This document shows, one piece after another, positions 541-46,014 of a stretch of DNA of 46,014 nucleotides. Position 1 is the stretch's first letter. Each line of letters opens with the position of its first letter. The notes below the pieces were generated by a model. The model was not told the origin of the DNA. It searched no databases and saw nothing but the letters and a program-made list of their open reading frames with translations. The translations under genes were made by a program, and so were the position numbers. This DNA comes from Verrucomicrobiota bacterium (lineage in GTDB: Bacteria > Verrucomicrobiota > Verrucomicrobiia > Limisphaerales > UBA9464): positions 1-46,014 of the forward strand of contig CANIZL010000051.1 of assembly GCA_947471985.1 (NCBI GenBank), read 5' to 3'.

Positions 541-1665
541 TCAGGCCGTCGGCCAGTTTCGCATCAAATGCACCAGATCCGAAACTTGCGGACTTTCCGC
601 GGTGCGGACGTAGTGGCCGCTGGTGCTGACGCCGCAGAGGACCGCCGTGGCGTTGTCGAAGCCCAACAATTTGCCGAGGCAGAAGCCGCTATTGAAATGA
701 TCGCCCGCCCCCGTGGTAATCTTCGGCTTCACACAGGTGGGCCCAGCCACCACCGACGCTTGTCCCTGGGAGACCGCGAGCGCGTAGGTCACCGGATGCA
801 CCACCAACGTGTCGACGGCCAGGCGCTTTTGGATGGCGATCGAGAGCGCAGAGAGCCCTTCCCAATCGTCTGAAGGCGCCGCGAAGCCGAGGACCCGACC
901 GATCTCGATCGCTTCCTTTTCATTGAGACCAAGGATGACGTCGAACGCCGTCTGGAATTTGCTGATCAAATCCAGAGCGTGGCGGATGTCATCGGCGGTG
1001 CGCTTTTCCGGGTCGGCGAGATCGAAGAAAATTTTGCGACGGGGTCCGGTGAGCGTGGGCAGGATCTCGCGCTGCACGGCCGCCCAGATTTCCGACATAT
1101 AGGGCAACATGGTCCAGTTCACGAAACCGACCAGATCCGCGCGGCCGAACTGCGTGGTGAAGGCCTCCTTGCCGAAGCGTTCGCAGATGTTGGCCCAGTT
1201 GACTTCCTTCAACGTGTAATGCTTGCCGACCATCAGCTTGCCGTCCTCGAATTCGAGGGCGTCGGTCAGGCCGGCGCCGCAGATGGAATGCACCTGGGCG
1301 CGCTTTTGGAAGGGCGCGAAGACCGGATGGATGGCGGGATAGCCGAGGGAGCCGAGGTAGGTGACGCCGAGGCCGAGGCTCGCCAGGGCATTGCCCATGA
1401 TCGGGCCGTTGCCGCCGAGTTTGGTCATGATGTTGACCAGTTCGACGTTGGTGGATTTACCTGCGGCGGCGGCCAGACGGGACGCGTAGGCGGCGATCGT
1501 GGGCACCCGGTCGTAGCGCACGGAGTCGTAGCGCTTGTCGACCACGTGCAGGATCTCATCCACGAAGCCGTCGAGTCCGACGAATGCGGTCAATTGCGGT
1601 ACCCGGCCCGCGGCGGCGGCCAATTGGTCGGCGGCGGTGTGACGGAAGGTGGAACTGTCGAGCAT
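541..1665 (-). CDS. PfkB-family carbohydrate kinase
   Basis: A 374-residue cytoplasmic kinase of the ribokinase/PfkB fold, expected to phosphorylate a sugar or nucleoside with ATP; the substrate cannot be told. Seen: an N-terminal VGLDGFVDEI segment, a glycine-rich LGGNGPIMGNALASLG stretch typical of the substrate-side region, and the family signature GAGDHFNSGF at about residues 319-328 whose Asp322 should be the catalytic base. I start at the ATG at 1665, preceded by GAGAG. A longer frame reaches 1764 but would run into the 3' end of the SUKH gene. It is the last gene of a minus-strand run (spermidine-synthase-like, parB, SUKH, kinase) with a gap of about 76 bases before it. Family assignment is firm, substrate unknown. 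Confidence 0.88.
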   Translation of the reverse strand: MLDSSTFRHTAADQLAAAAGRVPQLTAFVGLDGFVDEILHVVDKRYDSVRYDRVPTIAAYASRLAAAAGKSTNVELVNIMTKLGGNGPIMGNALASLGLGVTYLGSLGYPAIHPVFAPFQKRAQVHSICGAGLTDALEFEDGKLMVGKHYTLKEVNWANICERFGKEAFTTQFGRADLVGFVNWTMLPYMSEIWAAVQREILPTLTGPRRKIFFDLADPEKRTADDIRHALDLISKFQTAFDVILGLNEKEAIEIGRVLGFAAPSDDWEGLSALSIAIQKRLAVDTLVVHPVTYALAVSQGQASVVAGPTCVKPKITTGAGDHFNSGFCLGKLLGFDNATAVLCGVSTSGHYVRTAESPQVSDLVHLMRNWPTA

Positions 1666-1741
1666 ACTCTCTTCGATTGCGATCTTGGTTGGTTTTGAAA
1701 AAGGGATTCGGTCGAGTTTGTCGGGACCGGCGGATGCGGCC

Positions 1742-2359
1742 TCAGTCCGGCAGCTTGAATTCAAACGTTTCCCCGGGCTTCGCCTGGGACATTTGCCGGG
1801 CGACCCCGCTCAGAAACTCCAGGTGCTGATTGCGTCCCACGGCTTTCACGGTGAGGCCGTCCGCGGATTGACGCGTGGACACCGGCGGCCAGCAGAGCAG
1901 GGATTGATCGGGAGCGAGTTGGTGGCCTTGTTCCTGGAAACTCACCAGGGGCTGCAGGCCGAGGAAATCCACCGGTCGCGTGGCCAGGGCGCCGAAGAAT
2001 TCCTTCAGGGAGAGGGCGAGGTTGTGCAGCGTGCCGGTTTCGGCATCGAGGTGCCAGACCTTGAAATCGCGCAGCAGGAATTGATCGCCGTAACAATCCT
2101 CCGCGAAGGGAATGTCCGAGGACCGGACGTGGGGGAAAAGGCGGTGGATGGCCCGCGGACCGGTCATCGCGGCCTGCAGGGAATGCCAGTCGGGCATCGA
2201 ACAAATGCCGCGCAGATGAAATCCGCCGGCGCAGGCGATGAAGCCGTTGTTCTGCCGCAGCACCCCGCCTAGGGAGACCGGCAGGGCCTCCAGCAGGGGC
2301 CATTCATTGATTTCCGGACCGGTCCAGGTGACGGCGGGAATGGAGAACGTGGCGGACAT
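1742..2359 (-). CDS. SMI1/KNR4 (SUKH) family protein
   Basis: A 205-residue protein with the pattern of the SMI1/KNR4 (SUKH) superfamily: an N-terminal PEINEWPLLEALPVSLGG helix region, then GDQFLLRDFKVWHLDAETG, the strand-rich core where these proteins usually read 'DqfllrdgkVyhldaETG'. Known members include immunity proteins of polymorphic toxin systems and proteins of unknown housekeeping role. No toxin gene lies next to it; it sits between parB (31 bases upstream) and the PfkB kinase on the same strand, so an immunity role is not supported here. The start at 2359 is an ATG without a clear Shine-Dalgarno sequence. Family call is good, function unknown. Confidence 0.75.
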   Translation of the reverse strand: MSATFSIPAVTWTGPEINEWPLLEALPVSLGGVLRQNNGFIACAGGFHLRGICSMPDWHSLQAAMTGPRAIHRLFPHVRSSDIPFAEDCYGDQFLLRDFKVWHLDAETGTLHNLALSLKEFFGALATRPVDFLGLQPLVSFQEQGHQLAPDQSLLCWPPVSTRQSADGLTVKAVGRNQHLEFLSGVARQMSQAKPGETFEFKLPD

Positions 2360-2390
2360 GCAGCGATGGAAAGGGGAGGCGGGGAACCGT

Positions 2391-3356
2391 TCAATCCAGC
2401 TTCAGCCCGAGAAGATCCAGGATCCGATTTAATTCGTCATCGCTGCCGAATTTCAATTCCAGGCTGCCCACGCCCTGATCGTACTTGAGCGCCACCTTGG
2501 TGGTGAAGCGTTCCCGCAGGCGATTCTCGACGTCCAAGACGTGCGGGTCGCGCGGCGCCGGCGGGGGTGGGGGTGTCTTGACCGGCTTGGGACCGGTCCA
2601 ACGGGCCACCAATTCCTCCAACTGCCGGACGGTCAAACCCTCGTTGGTCACGCGGGCGGCGGCGCTTTCCTGCAGCCCGGTGTCGGCCAGACCGAGCAAC
2701 ACCTTGGCGTGGCCGACGCTCAGCGTGCCGGCGCGTACCAGTTCCTGAATCGTCGGCGTGAGCTTCAGGAGACGCAGCGAATTGGCCACGACCACCCGGC
2801 CCCGGCCCACCTTCTGGGCGATCTGTTCCTGGGTCAGCGAGAATTGCGCCGCCAACAGGGAGTAGCCGAGGGCCTCTTCGATCGGGTTGAGGTTCTCGCG
2901 CTGCAGGTTCTCAATGAGCGCGACTTCCAACAGTTCCCGATCCGTCGCGGCTCGTTCCACGATCGGCACTTCGGTGAGACCGGCCAGTTTGGCGGCCCGC
3001 CAGCGACGTTCGCCCGCGATGAGTTCATAGCGATCCCCCGAGGGGCGGACGACGAGGGGTTGAACGATGCCCTGTTCGCGGATGGAATCAGCGAGTTCCC
3101 GGAGGGCGTCCTCGGTGAAATCCTTGCGGGGCTGCAGCGGACTGGGGAAGACCCGATCCAGCGCCACCTTGAGCACCGCGGTACCGGGGGCGGGTTTCGT
3201 GGGCGTCGGCGGCAGGGAATAGACCGGCGTGGGCAGCGTGTTTGCGGACGGGAGGGCGCCCGGATTGGGGACGGGGACGCCTGCGGGGGACGGCCCAGCC
3301 TTGGTGCCGCCGCCCAACAGCGCACTCAATCCACGTCCAAGTACCGGTTTCGACAT
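2391..3356 (-). CDS. parB: ParB/Spo0J chromosome-partitioning protein
   Basis: A 321-residue ParB. It begins MSKPVLGRGLSALLGG, the conserved N-terminal peptide with which ParB stimulates ParA. A proline-rich linker follows, then the ParB N-terminal (CTPase) domain with GERRWRAA at 115-122 and ENLQRENLN at 149-157, a helix-turn-helix around 173-200 for parS binding, and a C-terminal dimerisation segment. I start at the ATG at 3356 because the 16 extra residues of the longer frame precede the universal MSKPVLGRGL start. No parA gene is in the window, and the upstream neighbour (84 bases away, same strand) is a spermidine-synthase-like gene rather than parA, so this parB is separated from its usual partner. 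Family call is secure. Confidence 0.95.
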   Translation of the reverse strand: MSKPVLGRGLSALLGGGTKAGPSPAGVPVPNPGALPSANTLPTPVYSLPPTPTKPAPGTAVLKVALDRVFPSPLQPRKDFTEDALRELADSIREQGIVQPLVVRPSGDRYELIAGERRWRAAKLAGLTEVPIVERAATDRELLEVALIENLQRENLNPIEEALGYSLLAAQFSLTQEQIAQKVGRGRVVVANSLRLLKLTPTIQELVRAGTLSVGHAKVLLGLADTGLQESAAARVTNEGLTVRQLEELVARWTGPKPVKTPPPPPAPRDPHVLDVENRLRERFTTKVALKYDQGVGSLELKFGSDDELNRILDLLGLKLD

Positions 3357-42347: not shown

Positions 42348-42372
42348 GCGGTACCGGTACCGCCGGTTTTTT
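42348..42372. terminator. Second palindrome with T-run after gltD
   Basis: The self-complementary gcggtaccggtaccgc (42348-42363) is followed by cggtttttt on the plus strand. It may back up the gltBD terminator. The convergent hydrolase gene stops right next to the T-run, so its own message could also form this hairpin. Confidence 0.45.
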
Positions 42373-43222
42373 AACTGGCGTGACGGGGCTCGTTCCGGCC
42401 GGACCGGCCGGCGGCCTCCGTTACCGCGAAATGCCGTCGCAGCCGTTCATTGATCCACTCCGGCATTTGCAAGGTCACGCCGTGTGAAGCGTCCGCGACT
42501 TCTTCGTACGTGGCTTGGGGAATCAGTTCGGCCAGGCGACGGCCATACTCCGGCCGCGCGATTGGATCGTGCCGCCCGCTGATGACCTGGGTTCGGATTC
42601 CCTTCAGGGCTTCGAGCCGGACCGAGATGTCATGCCGCCCGAGCGCCTGGACCTGTTTCAGGATCACGGGCGGTTGGACAGCAAGGTCGCGTCCGATGAT
42701 GGCCCCCACCTCCGTGGCCAGCGCGTCGAGCTTCGCGGTGGCCAGATAGTCGGCGGGATACAGCATCTCGAGGAAGGCGCGTCGCCGCATCGCTCGCGTT
42801 CCCAGCCGTGTCCGCAAGGTCATCCAGAGCACCCACGGCGTCGGACGGGCCCCATCCTTGCCGCGGGCGAAGGTGGAAATGAGCGACAGGCTCCGAACCC
42901 GCCGGGGTGCGTCGAGCGCGATTTGTTGGGCGATGACTCCGCCCATCGAATGTCCCACGACATGCGCGGATCCCCAGCCGGCCGCGTCCATCAACGCAAG
43001 CGCATCGCCGGCCATGGCTTCGATGGTTACTTCGCCGGTCACGCGGCTTTGACCAATGCCCCGATTGTCGCTGGTCAGGAGTTGATGGTTCGCGGACAGC
43101 CCGGTCACCTGGGGCCGCCAACCGCAACCGAGCACACCGACACCATGAAGGAGCAGAACGGGAGTCCCATGTCCCGCGAGATCGTAATGGAGGCTGCCCC
43201 CCGCGACGGAAAGTTCCGGCAT
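42371..43222 (-). CDS. Alpha/beta hydrolase
   Basis: A 283-residue alpha/beta-hydrolase fold enzyme. Oxyanion hole region LLLHGVGVLGCGW (24-36), nucleophile elbow GHSMGG (90-95, Ser92), acid Asp219 in SGRHDPIARPEY, and His247 in DASHGV. It thus has a complete triad and should act on an ester, lactone or C-C bond; the substrate is not predictable. I start at the ATG at 43222 rather than the longer frame to 43417, since the extra part overlaps the divergent membrane-anchored gene. Its 5' part was copied downstream as a decayed fragment at 44807-44945. Transcription is convergent with gltD. Confidence 0.85.
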   Translation of the reverse strand: MPELSVAGGSLHYDLAGHGTPVLLLHGVGVLGCGWRPQVTGLSANHQLLTSDNRGIGQSRVTGEVTIEAMAGDALALMDAAGWGSAHVVGHSMGGVIAQQIALDAPRRVRSLSLISTFARGKDGARPTPWVLWMTLRTRLGTRAMRRRAFLEMLYPADYLATAKLDALATEVGAIIGRDLAVQPPVILKQVQALGRHDISVRLEALKGIRTQVISGRHDPIARPEYGRRLAELIPQATYEEVADASHGVTLQMPEWINERLRRHFAVTEAAGRSGRNEPRHAS

Positions 43223-43358
43223 GGCGCGAGGATTCCTGTTCGGCTCCCGACGGGCAATACGTCCAAAGGAGGATGGCGCAGGAGCCCCGCGGGGACGTCG
43301 CCGGGATCCCGGGGCGCCGGGGCTGGTTGGTGGATTGACACGGAGAACGCGGGACGCG

Positions 43359-44735
43359 TTGCTTCCGCCTGTGCCCGCCAAGTTTTCGACGTCGCGATTT
43401 CCTCTCCGGCGTCGCACCGTGTTCAGGGCGCTCGCCGCGGGCGCCCTAATGCTGGTCTGGAGCTACCGCGCGGTGTGGTCGACGGATCCGTTTGAATCGC
43501 TGGTCATGGGAGCGCGGGCGCGGGGGTTGCCGGCATCGTGGTCGGATCTGGAACGTCAGTATCCGTTTCAACCGGCGGTTCACTCCAATTTCCTGACGTT
43601 CAATGCCCTGTTGGCTGGATTGCCGGAGCCACTGGCGGGTGCCGACGCTGCGGCGACGGAGTTGCCGATCGGTGGGAGGACGCTTTCCCCGAGGGGGGTC
43701 GCTTGGTTGGAGCGACAGGAAACCATCGTGGCGCAAGTGCAAGAGCGCTTGTCGGAACGTAGGAATTGGGATTTCGGATTCCTGCGGGAGGATGCCGGGA
43801 GGGATTACCCACCATTGGAGAACTATCACATGGCGGCGGCGGCGTTGCTCCGGACGCAGGCGCAATGGGAATTTGAGCGGGGACGATGGGATGCGGGCGT
43901 TGCCGGGTTGATATCGGCGGTGAGACTCATCCGATACAACGGCGGCGAATATAAGTTGATGGGGCTTCTGGTGCGTCACAGTGAGACCGAAAGTATGCAC
44001 GAACCCCTGCGGCACTTGCTGGGGCCGGGCCGGGGTCGCTGCACCGAGTTGCAATTGCGGGACCTGCAAGAAGCCTTCACCCGGCTGTTGGAGGCGCCCA
44101 CGGTGAGTCAGATTTTACGTATCGAGTGGGCCGTCCATTTGGAGGGTTTGCGGTCCACCAGTTTCTGGATCCCCGACGGGCCGGCCGCCACCACTTTGAA
44201 GGATCGCTTCACCAATTTCCTGTTGGGATGCGCCTACGCGCTTTCGGCCTCGAAAACGGCGGATACCTCTGACTACCTCCGAATTGCCGCCGCGCGGTGT
44301 GACGCTTTCGAGGGCACACTGGCACAACGCCAGCAGCGTTCGCAGGCCCTCGTCGCCGAGGTGGCTGTGATCAGGAAGAAGTGGAACCGACCGCTTTTCC
44401 GGATGATGGATGCCAATTTCCCGGCCCTCAACCAATGGGAATTTGGGGCCACCGCTTGGGTGCGAGCCGCTGTCACCACCCTGGCCGTGGAACGGTTCCG
44501 TCTAAAATACGGCCAACTTCCGGTCGATACGGCGGTGCTGGTGCCGGAGTTTTTGCCGGAAGTGCTGCGCGATCCCATCGATGATCTGCCGCTGCGGTAT
44601 CGTCGGGAGGCCGAGGGCTTTGTGGTTTATTCCATTGGGTCCAATGCCCGCGACGATGCGGGTCAATTGAATACCGTGAACGACCCGGTCAATGGAGCGA
44701 AGGCAGGAGGGGACCAGGGAATCCGGGTGCCGTAA
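43359..44735 (+). CDS. Membrane-anchored protein with pseudopilin-like C-terminal motif (paralogue 1)
   Basis: A protein of about 458 residues that I do not recognise as an enzyme. It has one N-terminal membrane helix (TVFRALAAGALMLVWSYRAV) followed by ARARGLPASWSDLERQYPFQ, a conserved region also present in the neighbour at 45067. The remainder is helical. The C-terminus reads KYGQLPVDTAVLVPEFLPEV, then RDPIDDLPLRYRREAEGFVV and YSIGSNARDDAG, the end common to Verrucomicrobiota/Planctomycetota proteins similar to type II pseudopilins. The frame is open to 43221; I favour the TTG at 43359 because the paralogue shares the reading from here on. A GTG at 43371 is equally good. It is divergent from the hydrolase. 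Role unknown. Confidence 0.65.
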   Translation: MLPPVPAKFSTSRFPLRRRTVFRALAAGALMLVWSYRAVWSTDPFESLVMGARARGLPASWSDLERQYPFQPAVHSNFLTFNALLAGLPEPLAGADAAATELPIGGRTLSPRGVAWLERQETIVAQVQERLSERRNWDFGFLREDAGRDYPPLENYHMAAAALLRTQAQWEFERGRWDAGVAGLISAVRLIRYNGGEYKLMGLLVRHSETESMHEPLRHLLGPGRGRCTELQLRDLQEAFTRLLEAPTVSQILRIEWAVHLEGLRSTSFWIPDGPAATTLKDRFTNFLLGCAYALSASKTADTSDYLRIAAARCDAFEGTLAQRQQRSQALVAEVAVIRKKWNRPLFRMMDANFPALNQWEFGATAWVRAAVTTLAVERFRLKYGQLPVDTAVLVPEFLPEVLRDPIDDLPLRYRREAEGFVVYSIGSNARDDAGQLNTVNDPVNGAKAGGDQGIRVP

Positions 44736-44806
44736 GGTTGGGTTTCGGAAGCCCGATCGGCCCGGTGTCGAACTTTGGGGGGGCGAGATTTTGGAACTCC
44801 GTTCCG

Positions 44807-44945
44807 GGAGTTGCTGGTTCGCGGACAGCCCGGCCACCTGGGGCTGCCAACTGCAACCGAGCACACTGGCCCGTCAACAAGCAGAACGGGAGTTCCGGGT
44901 CACTCGAGTTCGTGATGGAGGCTTCCCTTCGCGACGGAAAGTTCC
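44807..44945 (-). pseudogene. Decayed 5' fragment of a second alpha/beta hydrolase gene
   Basis: Reading the minus strand gives MLGCSWQPQVAGLSANQQL, matching VLGCGWRPQVTGLSANHQL of the intact hydrolase at 42371-43222. The DNA from 44807 on is collinear with 43079 on, including gttcgcggacagcccgg and gcgacggaaagttccggc. The start codon equivalent has changed (ccggcatgg became ccggctttg), frame is lost, and everything downstream of about codon 48 of the enzyme is missing. It is a relic carried along with the duplicated neighbour gene. Confidence 0.78.
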
Positions 44946-45066
44946 GGCTTTGGGCCGGCAACACGTCCAAAAAAGATGGCGCTCCCGAGCTCAGGTCATC
45001 GCGGTACTTCTGGACTGTTGGGGCAATGCTGGCCGCAGCGCCCCGGGTTGCGGATTGACAAGGAGA

Positions 45067-45900
45067 ATGCCGGGCACGTTGCTGCGGCCTGTGTCCGCCA
45101 AGGTGTCGATATCGGGATTACTCTTCCGGCGGCGCGTCCTGTTATGGGCCCTCGTAGCCGGCGTCCTGGCGTTGGTCTGGAGTTATCGGAATCTCGTGTC
45201 GACCGACCGGTTGGAGCAGCTGGCCAGCGATGCGCGGGCGCGGGGGTTGCCGGCATCCTGGTCGGATCTGGAGCGTCAGTATCCGTTTCAACCGGCGGTT
45301 TACTCCAACTATCTCGCCTTCCACACCCACTTCAGCGAGTTGCCGCAGCCACCGGCGAGTGCGTACGCCGCGGCGACCGGGATGACAAACAGTGGGCGGC
45401 CCGTTTTGCCGGAGGTGGTTGCCTGGATGGAACGTAATGAGGCCACGGCGACGCAGTTGCAGCAGCTTTTGCTGGATGGGGTGAACGGGGATTTCGGGGT
45501 CCGGCGGGCGGCGACGGGGGTGGATTTTCCTCTGACTGCTTCGGACCATATGGCGGCGGTGACCTTACTGCGGACGCGGGCGGAGTGGGCGTTTGAGCGA
45601 GGACGAATGGATGTGGGCGGTGCTGCGTTGATTGCGGTGGTGCGACTGATTCGTTGCAACGGCGGTGACTATTCGCTGATCGGCTCTATCGTGCGTCAGG
45701 GCGAAATTAAAAGTACGCATGAAACCGTACTGAATTTGTTGGCGGCCGGACTGGGGCGGTTGACTGCCCCACAATTGCGGGACTTGCAGCAGGCCTTTGC
45801 CCAGTTGTTGGAGGCGCCAACGATGAGCGTGGTACTGCGCATCAACTGGGCCGCGCAATTGGACCGTGTTGCTTCGGCAAGCGTGCGTGCGTTGGGATAG
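45067..45900 (+). CDS. Truncated paralogue 2 of the membrane-anchored protein
   Basis: A 277-residue frame homologous to the first 270 or so residues of the gene at 43359: a membrane helix (VLLWALVAGVLALVWSYRNL), ARARGLPASWSDLERQYPFQ, the MAA.TLLRT.A.W.FERGR segment and PTMSVVLRINWAAQLDRVAS. Similarity stops near 45885, and the frame ends four codons later in RALG and TAG, whereas paralogue 1 goes on for another 180 residues with the pseudopilin-like end. The ATG at 45067 sits only one base behind AAGGAGA, so a TTG at 45079 is also possible. It may be a non-functional remnant. The gene after it starts within 25 bases. Confidence 0.6.
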   Translation: MPGTLLRPVSAKVSISGLLFRRRVLLWALVAGVLALVWSYRNLVSTDRLEQLASDARARGLPASWSDLERQYPFQPAVYSNYLAFHTHFSELPQPPASAYAAATGMTNSGRPVLPEVVAWMERNEATATQLQQLLLDGVNGDFGVRRAATGVDFPLTASDHMAAVTLLRTRAEWAFERGRMDVGGAALIAVVRLIRCNGGDYSLIGSIVRQGEIKSTHETVLNLLAAGLGRLTAPQLRDLQQAFAQLLEAPTMSVVLRINWAAQLDRVASASVRALG

Positions 45901-45924
45901 GTGAGTGGCAGGGTGAGGGCGTTA

Positions 45925-46014
45925 ATGAACACGCCCACCTTTTGCTCGACGGATCTTACCCAGCTTGAACGCCAATTGGATCGGTGGCGTGGGCGACAGT
46001 CCGGTCGGGTACGA
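45925..46014 (+). CDS. Start of a possible IS-associated HTH protein, cut by the window end
   Basis: An ATG at 45925 opens a frame of 30 codons that continues past the window: MNTPTFCSTDLTQLERQLDR followed by WRGRQSGRVR. The pattern LERQL..WR..Q.GR is like the N-terminus of small helix-turn-helix proteins that precede transposase genes in PVC bacteria (memory, unverified). It begins right where homology of the truncated paralogue ends, which fits a mobile element having joined there. Confidence 0.4.
   Translation, partial: MNTPTFCSTDLTQLERQLDRWRGRQSGRVR

What the first reader, a model, noticed from the sequence alone, without database searches (positions are those of the whole stretch)
43079..45885. 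1.1-kb segmental duplication: 43079-44155 copied as 44807-45885
The copy is collinear from inside the hydrolase gene to the middle of the membrane-anchored gene. Both genes are cut: the hydrolase is a 5' fragment without a start codon and paralogue 2 lacks 180 C-terminal residues. The boundaries thus ignore gene limits, typical of a DNA-level duplication rather than gene family growth.
Basis: seen in the sequence. Interest (0 to 1): 0.5.

Follow-up and report, generated by a model that had tools for sequence, protein, structure and literature searches.

The report
Tandem gene duplication, copy IS-interrupted
A 1.7-kb stretch of a bacterial genome was copied head to tail long ago, giving two complete related genes, and one of them was later cut by a jumping element, which is why it looked truncated; this is ordinary genome evolution.

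Summary
The repeat is real but longer than reported, and one of its two 'cuts' has another cause. The window is one whole contig (C51) of a draft genome, probably verrucomicrobial. The unit is 43078-44806 (1729 bp). Copy 2 starts at 44807 with no spacer, so this is a head-to-tail tandem duplication. It carries the first ~48 codons of an alpha/beta-hydrolase gene and the complete anchored gene with its downstream stretch. Copy 2 of the anchored gene is not truncated by the duplication: at 45866 it meets the end of an IS66-type insertion sequence (22-bp terminal repeat), and the contig ends 149 bp inside it. The other IS end and the missing ~200 residues lie on contig C172, with the same 8-bp target duplication beside each end. 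Across the empty site copy 2 reads as one open frame of 463 residues, aligned to copy 1 over 462 codons; dN/dS is about 0.39. Order of events: tandem duplication, long divergence as two constrained genes, then a recent IS knock-out. The lost part includes a segment that looks GspG-like. The process is ordinary; interest is low.

The parts
43078..44806 (+). copy 1 of the tandem unit (1729 bp): 5' part of the hydrolase gene, intergenic stretch, complete anchored gene, downstream stretch
   Evidence: alignment with 44807-45865 and with C172:147 to about 808
44807..45865 (+). copy 2 of the unit, left part (1059 bp), up to the IS; the right part is on contig C172
42371..43222 (-). intact alpha/beta-hydrolase gene (283 aa from the ATG at 43222); its first ~48 codons are in the duplicated unit
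   Evidence: PF00561 E 1.5e-23; ORF
44807..44950 (-). hydrolase 5' fragment in copy 2: start codon changed, frameshifted, no 3' part
43359..44735 (+). anchored gene, copy 1 (458 aa from TTG 43359; start uncertain, the base triplet matching copy 2's ATG is ACG at 43347); C-terminal ~90 residues look GspG-like
45067..45865 (+). anchored gene, copy 2, 5' part up to the IS; then out of homology to a stop at 45900
45858..45865 (.). 8-bp target-site duplication, left copy; the right copy is C172:139-146
45866..45887 (+). 22-bp terminal inverted repeat of the IS; exact reverse complement at C172:117-138
45866..46014 (+). left end of an IS66-type insertion sequence, cut by the contig end
   Evidence: 71% identical to six other IS ends in the same genome and 70% to a complete IS66-type element in G011
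45925..46014 (+). first 30 codons of the IS's first ORF (runs off the contig); 17 of 30 residues identical to orf1 of the G011 element

Best explanation
A 1729-bp stretch was duplicated once, head to tail. The left breakpoint fell inside the hydrolase gene and the right one downstream of the anchored gene, so the event left an intact hydrolase, a useless hydrolase 5' fragment and two complete copies of the anchored gene (shown by alignment). The two gene copies then diverged to 61% protein identity while both reading frames were kept, so copy 2 was probably a working gene (inferred from dN/dS about 0.39, no gap in 462 codons and equal rates). Later an IS66-type element jumped into codon ~267 of copy 2, made an 8-bp target duplication and split the gene (shown by the two IS ends and the duplication). 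The assembler did not bridge the element, so the 5' half ends contig C51 and the 3' half begins contig C172 (inferred). Copy 2 is now most likely a knocked-out gene. The protein itself is probably a surface or envelope protein with an N-terminal anchor and a GspG-like C-terminal segment; its function is inferred only weakly.
For: Collinear alignment over the unit, zero spacer between copies. C172:140-733 matches residues 259-455 of copy 1 at 68%, just what copy 2 (residues 2-266) lacks. The 22-bp terminal repeat at 45866-45887 recurs exactly, inverted, at C172:117-138. The 8 bases before one end and after the other are identical, and no other length from 1 to 15 matches. The flanks read on in frame: 463 residues, no stop inside. 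The C172 side carries a typical IS66 transposase end (16 residues before a stop), similar to the end of the G011 transposase. The homologous complete element in G011 encodes TnpB_IS66 (1.5e-28) and DDE_Tnp_IS66 (7.1e-45). Differences between copies by codon position are 110/108/181, P 2e-6 against equal shares; NG86 dN 0.27, dS 0.71; YN00 0.26 and 0.93. Relative rates against the C88 paralogue: 21 against 29 columns, P 0.32, so copy 2 was not decaying faster.
Against: Contigs C51 and C172 are joined by inference; no reads or long-read contig were available. The middle of this IS is not in the assembly (the only transposase relatives in the genome are 48% and 27% identical), and its left end occurs only once at 100% in the genome, whereas a break caused by a repeat should show other copies. 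The terminal repeat begins GTGTTGC, not the GTAAGCG given for IS66. The related element in G011 (L062) shows no 8-bp duplication at its flanks. Identity is uneven along the unit (hydrolase fragment 56 of 60 and 65 of 80 bases; intergenic ~53 of 100; gene 71-74%), which a single event followed by even divergence does not explain.
Confidence: 0.9

Rival explanations
1. One reading: a 1.1-kb segment was duplicated and its right boundary truncated the anchored gene of copy 2.
For: Within the window alone the homology does stop near 45865 and an in-frame stop follows at 45900.
Against: The stop of homology coincides with an IS end; the continuing gene half lies on C172 behind the matching IS end and the same 8-bp duplication; beyond the IS the homology with copy 1 goes on past the stop codon.
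Confidence: 0.04
2. C172 is the 3' end of a third, independent copy (or of another strain in a mixed bin), and copy 2 of C51 really is truncated.
For: C51 and C172 are separate contigs, and the genome is a 180-contig draft with estimated contamination of 0.74%.
Against: It would need the same element inserted at the same base in the other copy: identical 8-bp duplication, opposite IS end, and restored reading frame. No third N-terminal half was found in the own genome.
Confidence: 0.05
3. Independent gene pairs that decayed separately, not a segmental duplication.
For: The family is widespread (55 of 58 genomes searched, own included) and forms arrays in relatives.
Against: The copies abut with no spacer and are alike in the hydrolase fragment and the intergenic edges as well as in the gene. 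No other hydrolase plus anchored-gene pair was found: the next hydrolase is on C9, the next near-full-length anchored gene on C88.
Confidence: 0.02

Closest known systems
Head-to-tail tandem gene duplication in bacteria (general kind; papers seen only as a search listing)
   Same: Direct orientation, copies abut, left boundary ignores gene limits, one whole gene gained.
   Different: Copies are old and diverged (about 70% DNA identity) instead of near-identical and unstable; one is now IS-inactivated.
IS66-family insertion sequences
   Same: Inverted terminal repeats of 22 bp, 8-bp target duplication, first-ORF start and transposase end alike to an element with TnpB_IS66 and DDE_Tnp_IS66. In PMC11946415 (passages seen) IS66 insertions in Frankia had 8-bp repeats and 23-bp terminal repeats.
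   Different: Terminal repeat starts GTGTTGC, not GTAAGCG; related complete elements (G011 L062, own C66) are 3433 bp and carry a DruA-family ORF between tnpB and tnpC. Whether the copy in this gene does is not known.
GspG / T2SSG major pseudopilins of type II secretion
   Same: C-terminal ~90 residues: profile of 15 relatives finds GspG 2kep at E 4.9e-4, and 5 of the 7 PDB sequences listed up to E 10 are GspG/EpsG; PF08334 is matched by 7 of 15 members, best 1.1e-4.
   Different: The window's own segment matches no Pfam family and the proteins are three to four times longer with a long unassigned middle part.

Membership tests
Tandem segmental duplication | two direct copies, head to tail, adjacent | tested here: met
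   43078-44806 and 44807 onwards, no spacer
Tandem segmental duplication | homology extends beyond gene limits and includes non-coding sequence | tested here: met
   hydrolase 5' fragment and stretch past the stop codon are included
Tandem segmental duplication | unduplicated state in a near relative | tested here: inconclusive
   no near relative held: in 80 gltD neighbourhoods of named genomes neither gene lies nearby (0 of 80, flanks up to 6 kb where stored); best hits in 57 relatives are 28-55% over part of the protein
Tandem segmental duplication | microhomology at the junction | tested here: inconclusive
   left site and junction share GGAGTTG, but the present right end on C172 shares only GG/GGG with it
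IS66 family | 8-bp target-site duplication | tested here: met
IS66 family | inverted terminal repeats of 20-30 bp | tested here: met
   22 bp, exact
IS66 family | terminal repeat begins GTAAGCG | tested here: not met
   begins GTGTTGC; rule taken from PMC11946415. I therefore write 'IS66-type'
IS66 family | TnpB and DDE_Tnp_IS66 transposase in this very element | not testable with these tools
   interior not assembled; met in the related G011 element, and relatives of its ORFs are in own C66
GspG / T2SSG | match to the T2SSG model above its cut-off | tested here: not met
   0 families for the window protein and its C-terminal segment; support is through relatives only
GspG / T2SSG | N-terminal hydrophobic helix | tested here: inconclusive
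   Kyte-Doolittle peak 1.33 in copy 1, 1.74 in copy 2, 1.58 in the C88 paralogue; fold model of low confidence, mean pLDDT 42

The most novel reading that the evidence does not exclude
The two tandem copies have exchanged sequence by gene conversion since the duplication. That would explain the patches of very high identity (56 of 60 bases at the hydrolase edge; the stretch 44517-44606 with dS 0.17 against 0.71 for the gene) beside nearly saturated intergenic sequence, and the pair would be a living diversification unit of a GspG-tailed paralogue family until the IS broke one copy. Synonymous identity is unevenly spread (P 0.008), but the longest run is not unusual (P 0.31).
Probability: 0.25. 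Interest if true: 0.3.

Novelty: new member of a known kind. Interest (0 to 1): 0.15.

Why it matters
It shows how a contig edge can disguise an IS knock-out as a truncated duplicate: reading the window alone gives a duplication with two arbitrary cuts, while the genome shows one complete tandem duplication and a later, separate insertion. For this lineage it is a clear step in the growth of a family of anchored proteins with a GspG-like tail. It changes no general idea.

Tried and rejected
A 7-bp microhomology (GGAGTTG) as the cause of the duplication: the left site and the junction share it, but the right end on C172 does not, so I do not claim it.

Naming the anchored protein by sequence: no Pfam match except DUF5372 at E 0.17 for the 5' part of copy 2, and no NCBIfam match near cut-off. 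A fold prediction from the two window copies was poor (pLDDT 42), so no fold search was made. A first C-terminal alignment (14 rows) mixed in five rows read on the wrong strand (L012, L014, L026, L025, L009); it was dropped, and a new set of 15 + strand rows was chosen, not all relatives.

Finding close named relatives with the anchored protein: 26 pattern matches, none confirmed. gltD as anchor gave 80 loci, none with these genes.

Literature: 1 paper listed; 1; 12; 8 of 38 listed; 12 of 14 listed; passages of one paper were seen (PMC11946415); the others were seen only as listings.

Full report
What is there. The window is contig C51 of a 6.38-Mb, 180-contig draft genome, from its first to its last base. 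By gltD the organism is probably verrucomicrobial: the best named matches of its GltD are labelled Verrucomicrobiales (82%), Pedosphaera and Verrucomicrobia (80%). Downstream of gltB/gltD lie a hydrolase gene (42371-43222, minus strand; PF00561 E 1.5e-23) and, divergent from it, a gene of unknown family (43359-44735, plus strand).

The duplication. Positions 43078 and 44807 start two collinear copies (five blocks at 71-93% identity; E 3.1e-133 for the second place). Since copy 2 begins at 44807, the unit is 43078-44806, 1729 bp, repeated head to tail without spacer. Before 43078 there is no alignable similarity. The unit holds about 48 codons of the hydrolase 5' end, the intergenic stretch, the whole anchored gene and the bases after its stop. 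In copy 2 the hydrolase fragment has lost its ATG and is frameshifted.

Why copy 2 looks truncated. A protein search of the own genome gives, besides the two window copies, a match on contig C172:140-733 to residues 259-455 at 68% identity; copy 2 of the window matches residues 2-266 at 55%. A search with the last 154 bases of the window returns C172:117-138, minus strand, 22 of 22 bases, plus six places at 71-72% of which five stop 144-148 bases inside the same kind of element at contig ends. So 45866-45887 and C172:117-138 are the two inverted ends of one kind of insertion sequence. The eight bases before 45866 equal the eight bases after C172:138; lengths 1 to 7 and 9 to 15 do not match. 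Removing the element and one of the two eight-base repeats in a script gives an open frame of 463 residues that aligns with copy 1 over 462 codons, 281 residues identical. After the stop codon the similarity of C172 to copy 1 goes on to about C172:808 and then ends, so copy 2 is complete (1059 bases on C51 and about 660 on C172).

The element. Its interior is not in the assembly. A homologous complete element was found in a relative of the same family (G011, locus L062, 3433 bp between terminal repeats) and one in the own genome (C66, locus L154, also 3433 bp). The G011 element encodes TnpB_IS66, a DruA-family protein and DDE_Tnp_IS66. The first 30 residues of the ORF at 45925 are identical in 17 of 30 to its first ORF, and the last 16 residues before the stop at C172:50-52 resemble the end of its transposase. 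Against a plain IS66 label: the terminal repeat does not start with GTAAGCG (rule from passages of PMC11946415), and L062 shows no 8-bp duplication at its own flanks. Against a repeat-caused contig break: the left end of this very element occurs once only in the genome.

Age and constraint. NG86 gives dN 0.27 and dS 0.71, YN00 0.26 and 0.93. Differences by codon position are 110, 108 and 181, P 2e-6 against equal shares. With the C88 paralogue as outgroup, 21 columns favour copy 1 and 29 copy 2 (P 0.32; in the C-terminal part 3 against 11, P 0.06). So the duplication is old, both genes were kept under selection, and copy 2 shows no sign of faster decay before the IS came in. The exact terminal repeats and the exact target duplication suggest that the insertion is recent. 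Identity is uneven: the hydrolase edge is 56 of 60 and then 65 of 80 bases, the intergenic part ~53 of 100, and the stretch 44517-44606 is 82 of 90. Shuffling identical and different synonymous codons gives P 0.008 for uneven spread but P 0.31 for the longest run. Gene conversion is possible, not shown.

The protein. Copy 1 has no Pfam or NCBIfam match. A profile of 15 relatives' C-terminal segments finds GspG of type II secretion (2kep, E 4.9e-4; 5 of 7 listed PDB sequences up to E 10 are GspG/EpsG), and 7 of 15 members match T2SSG, best 1.1e-4, the window's own not. The N-terminal hydrophobic stretch is weak in copy 1 (peak 1.33) and clearer in copy 2 (1.74). The family is common in relatives (55 of 58 genomes, own included, many matches covering only the C-terminal ~75 residues) and forms same-strand arrays in three of them in the listed rows. 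My reading, an envelope protein whose tail folds like a pseudopilin, is inference; the IS removes that tail from copy 2.

Verdict. A tandem duplication followed by an IS66-type knock-out explains the anatomy. It is an ordinary case of known kinds of event.

Noticed in passing
L062 (G011:C4), L154 (G000:C66:34000-37833), L155 (G000:C92), loci L148-L182: A DruA-family ORF (PF14236, named after the Druantia defence system) sits between tnpB and tnpC of IS66-type elements. Of the 30 loci returned, 7 have relatives of both tnpB and tnpC around it, in that order, and 10 have at least one (tblastn with the G011 proteins, loci with 1.5-kb flanks that contig ends often cut). Searches for IS66 together with DruA or DUF4338 in the paper library (listings only, 57 listing 12 of 14) showed no paper on this link; that is not proof of novelty.
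   Followed up: partly
L041 (G000:C172), 809-2958, minus strand: Two overlapping ORFs in different frames (389 and 338 aa) look like one gene split by a frameshift or a sequencing error; from its repeats I would guess a parallel beta-helix protein (recalled, not searched).
   Followed up: no
43078-43222 against 44807-44950: The hydrolase fragment in copy 2, with no evident coding role, is more alike to its source (56 of 60, then 65 of 80 bases) than the intergenic stretch beside it (~53 of 100); unexplained (gene conversion or some constraint).
   Followed up: partly
G022:C31:234509-240438, G019:C24:53669-59608, G020:C130:141-6390: Same-strand arrays of 5, 4 and 4 matches to the anchored protein family in relatives, suggesting repeated local duplication.
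   Followed up: no
43347-43361 and 45067-45081: The start codon of the anchored gene differs between the copies: ATG in copy 2, ACG at the same place in copy 1, with TTG downstream in both.
   Followed up: no
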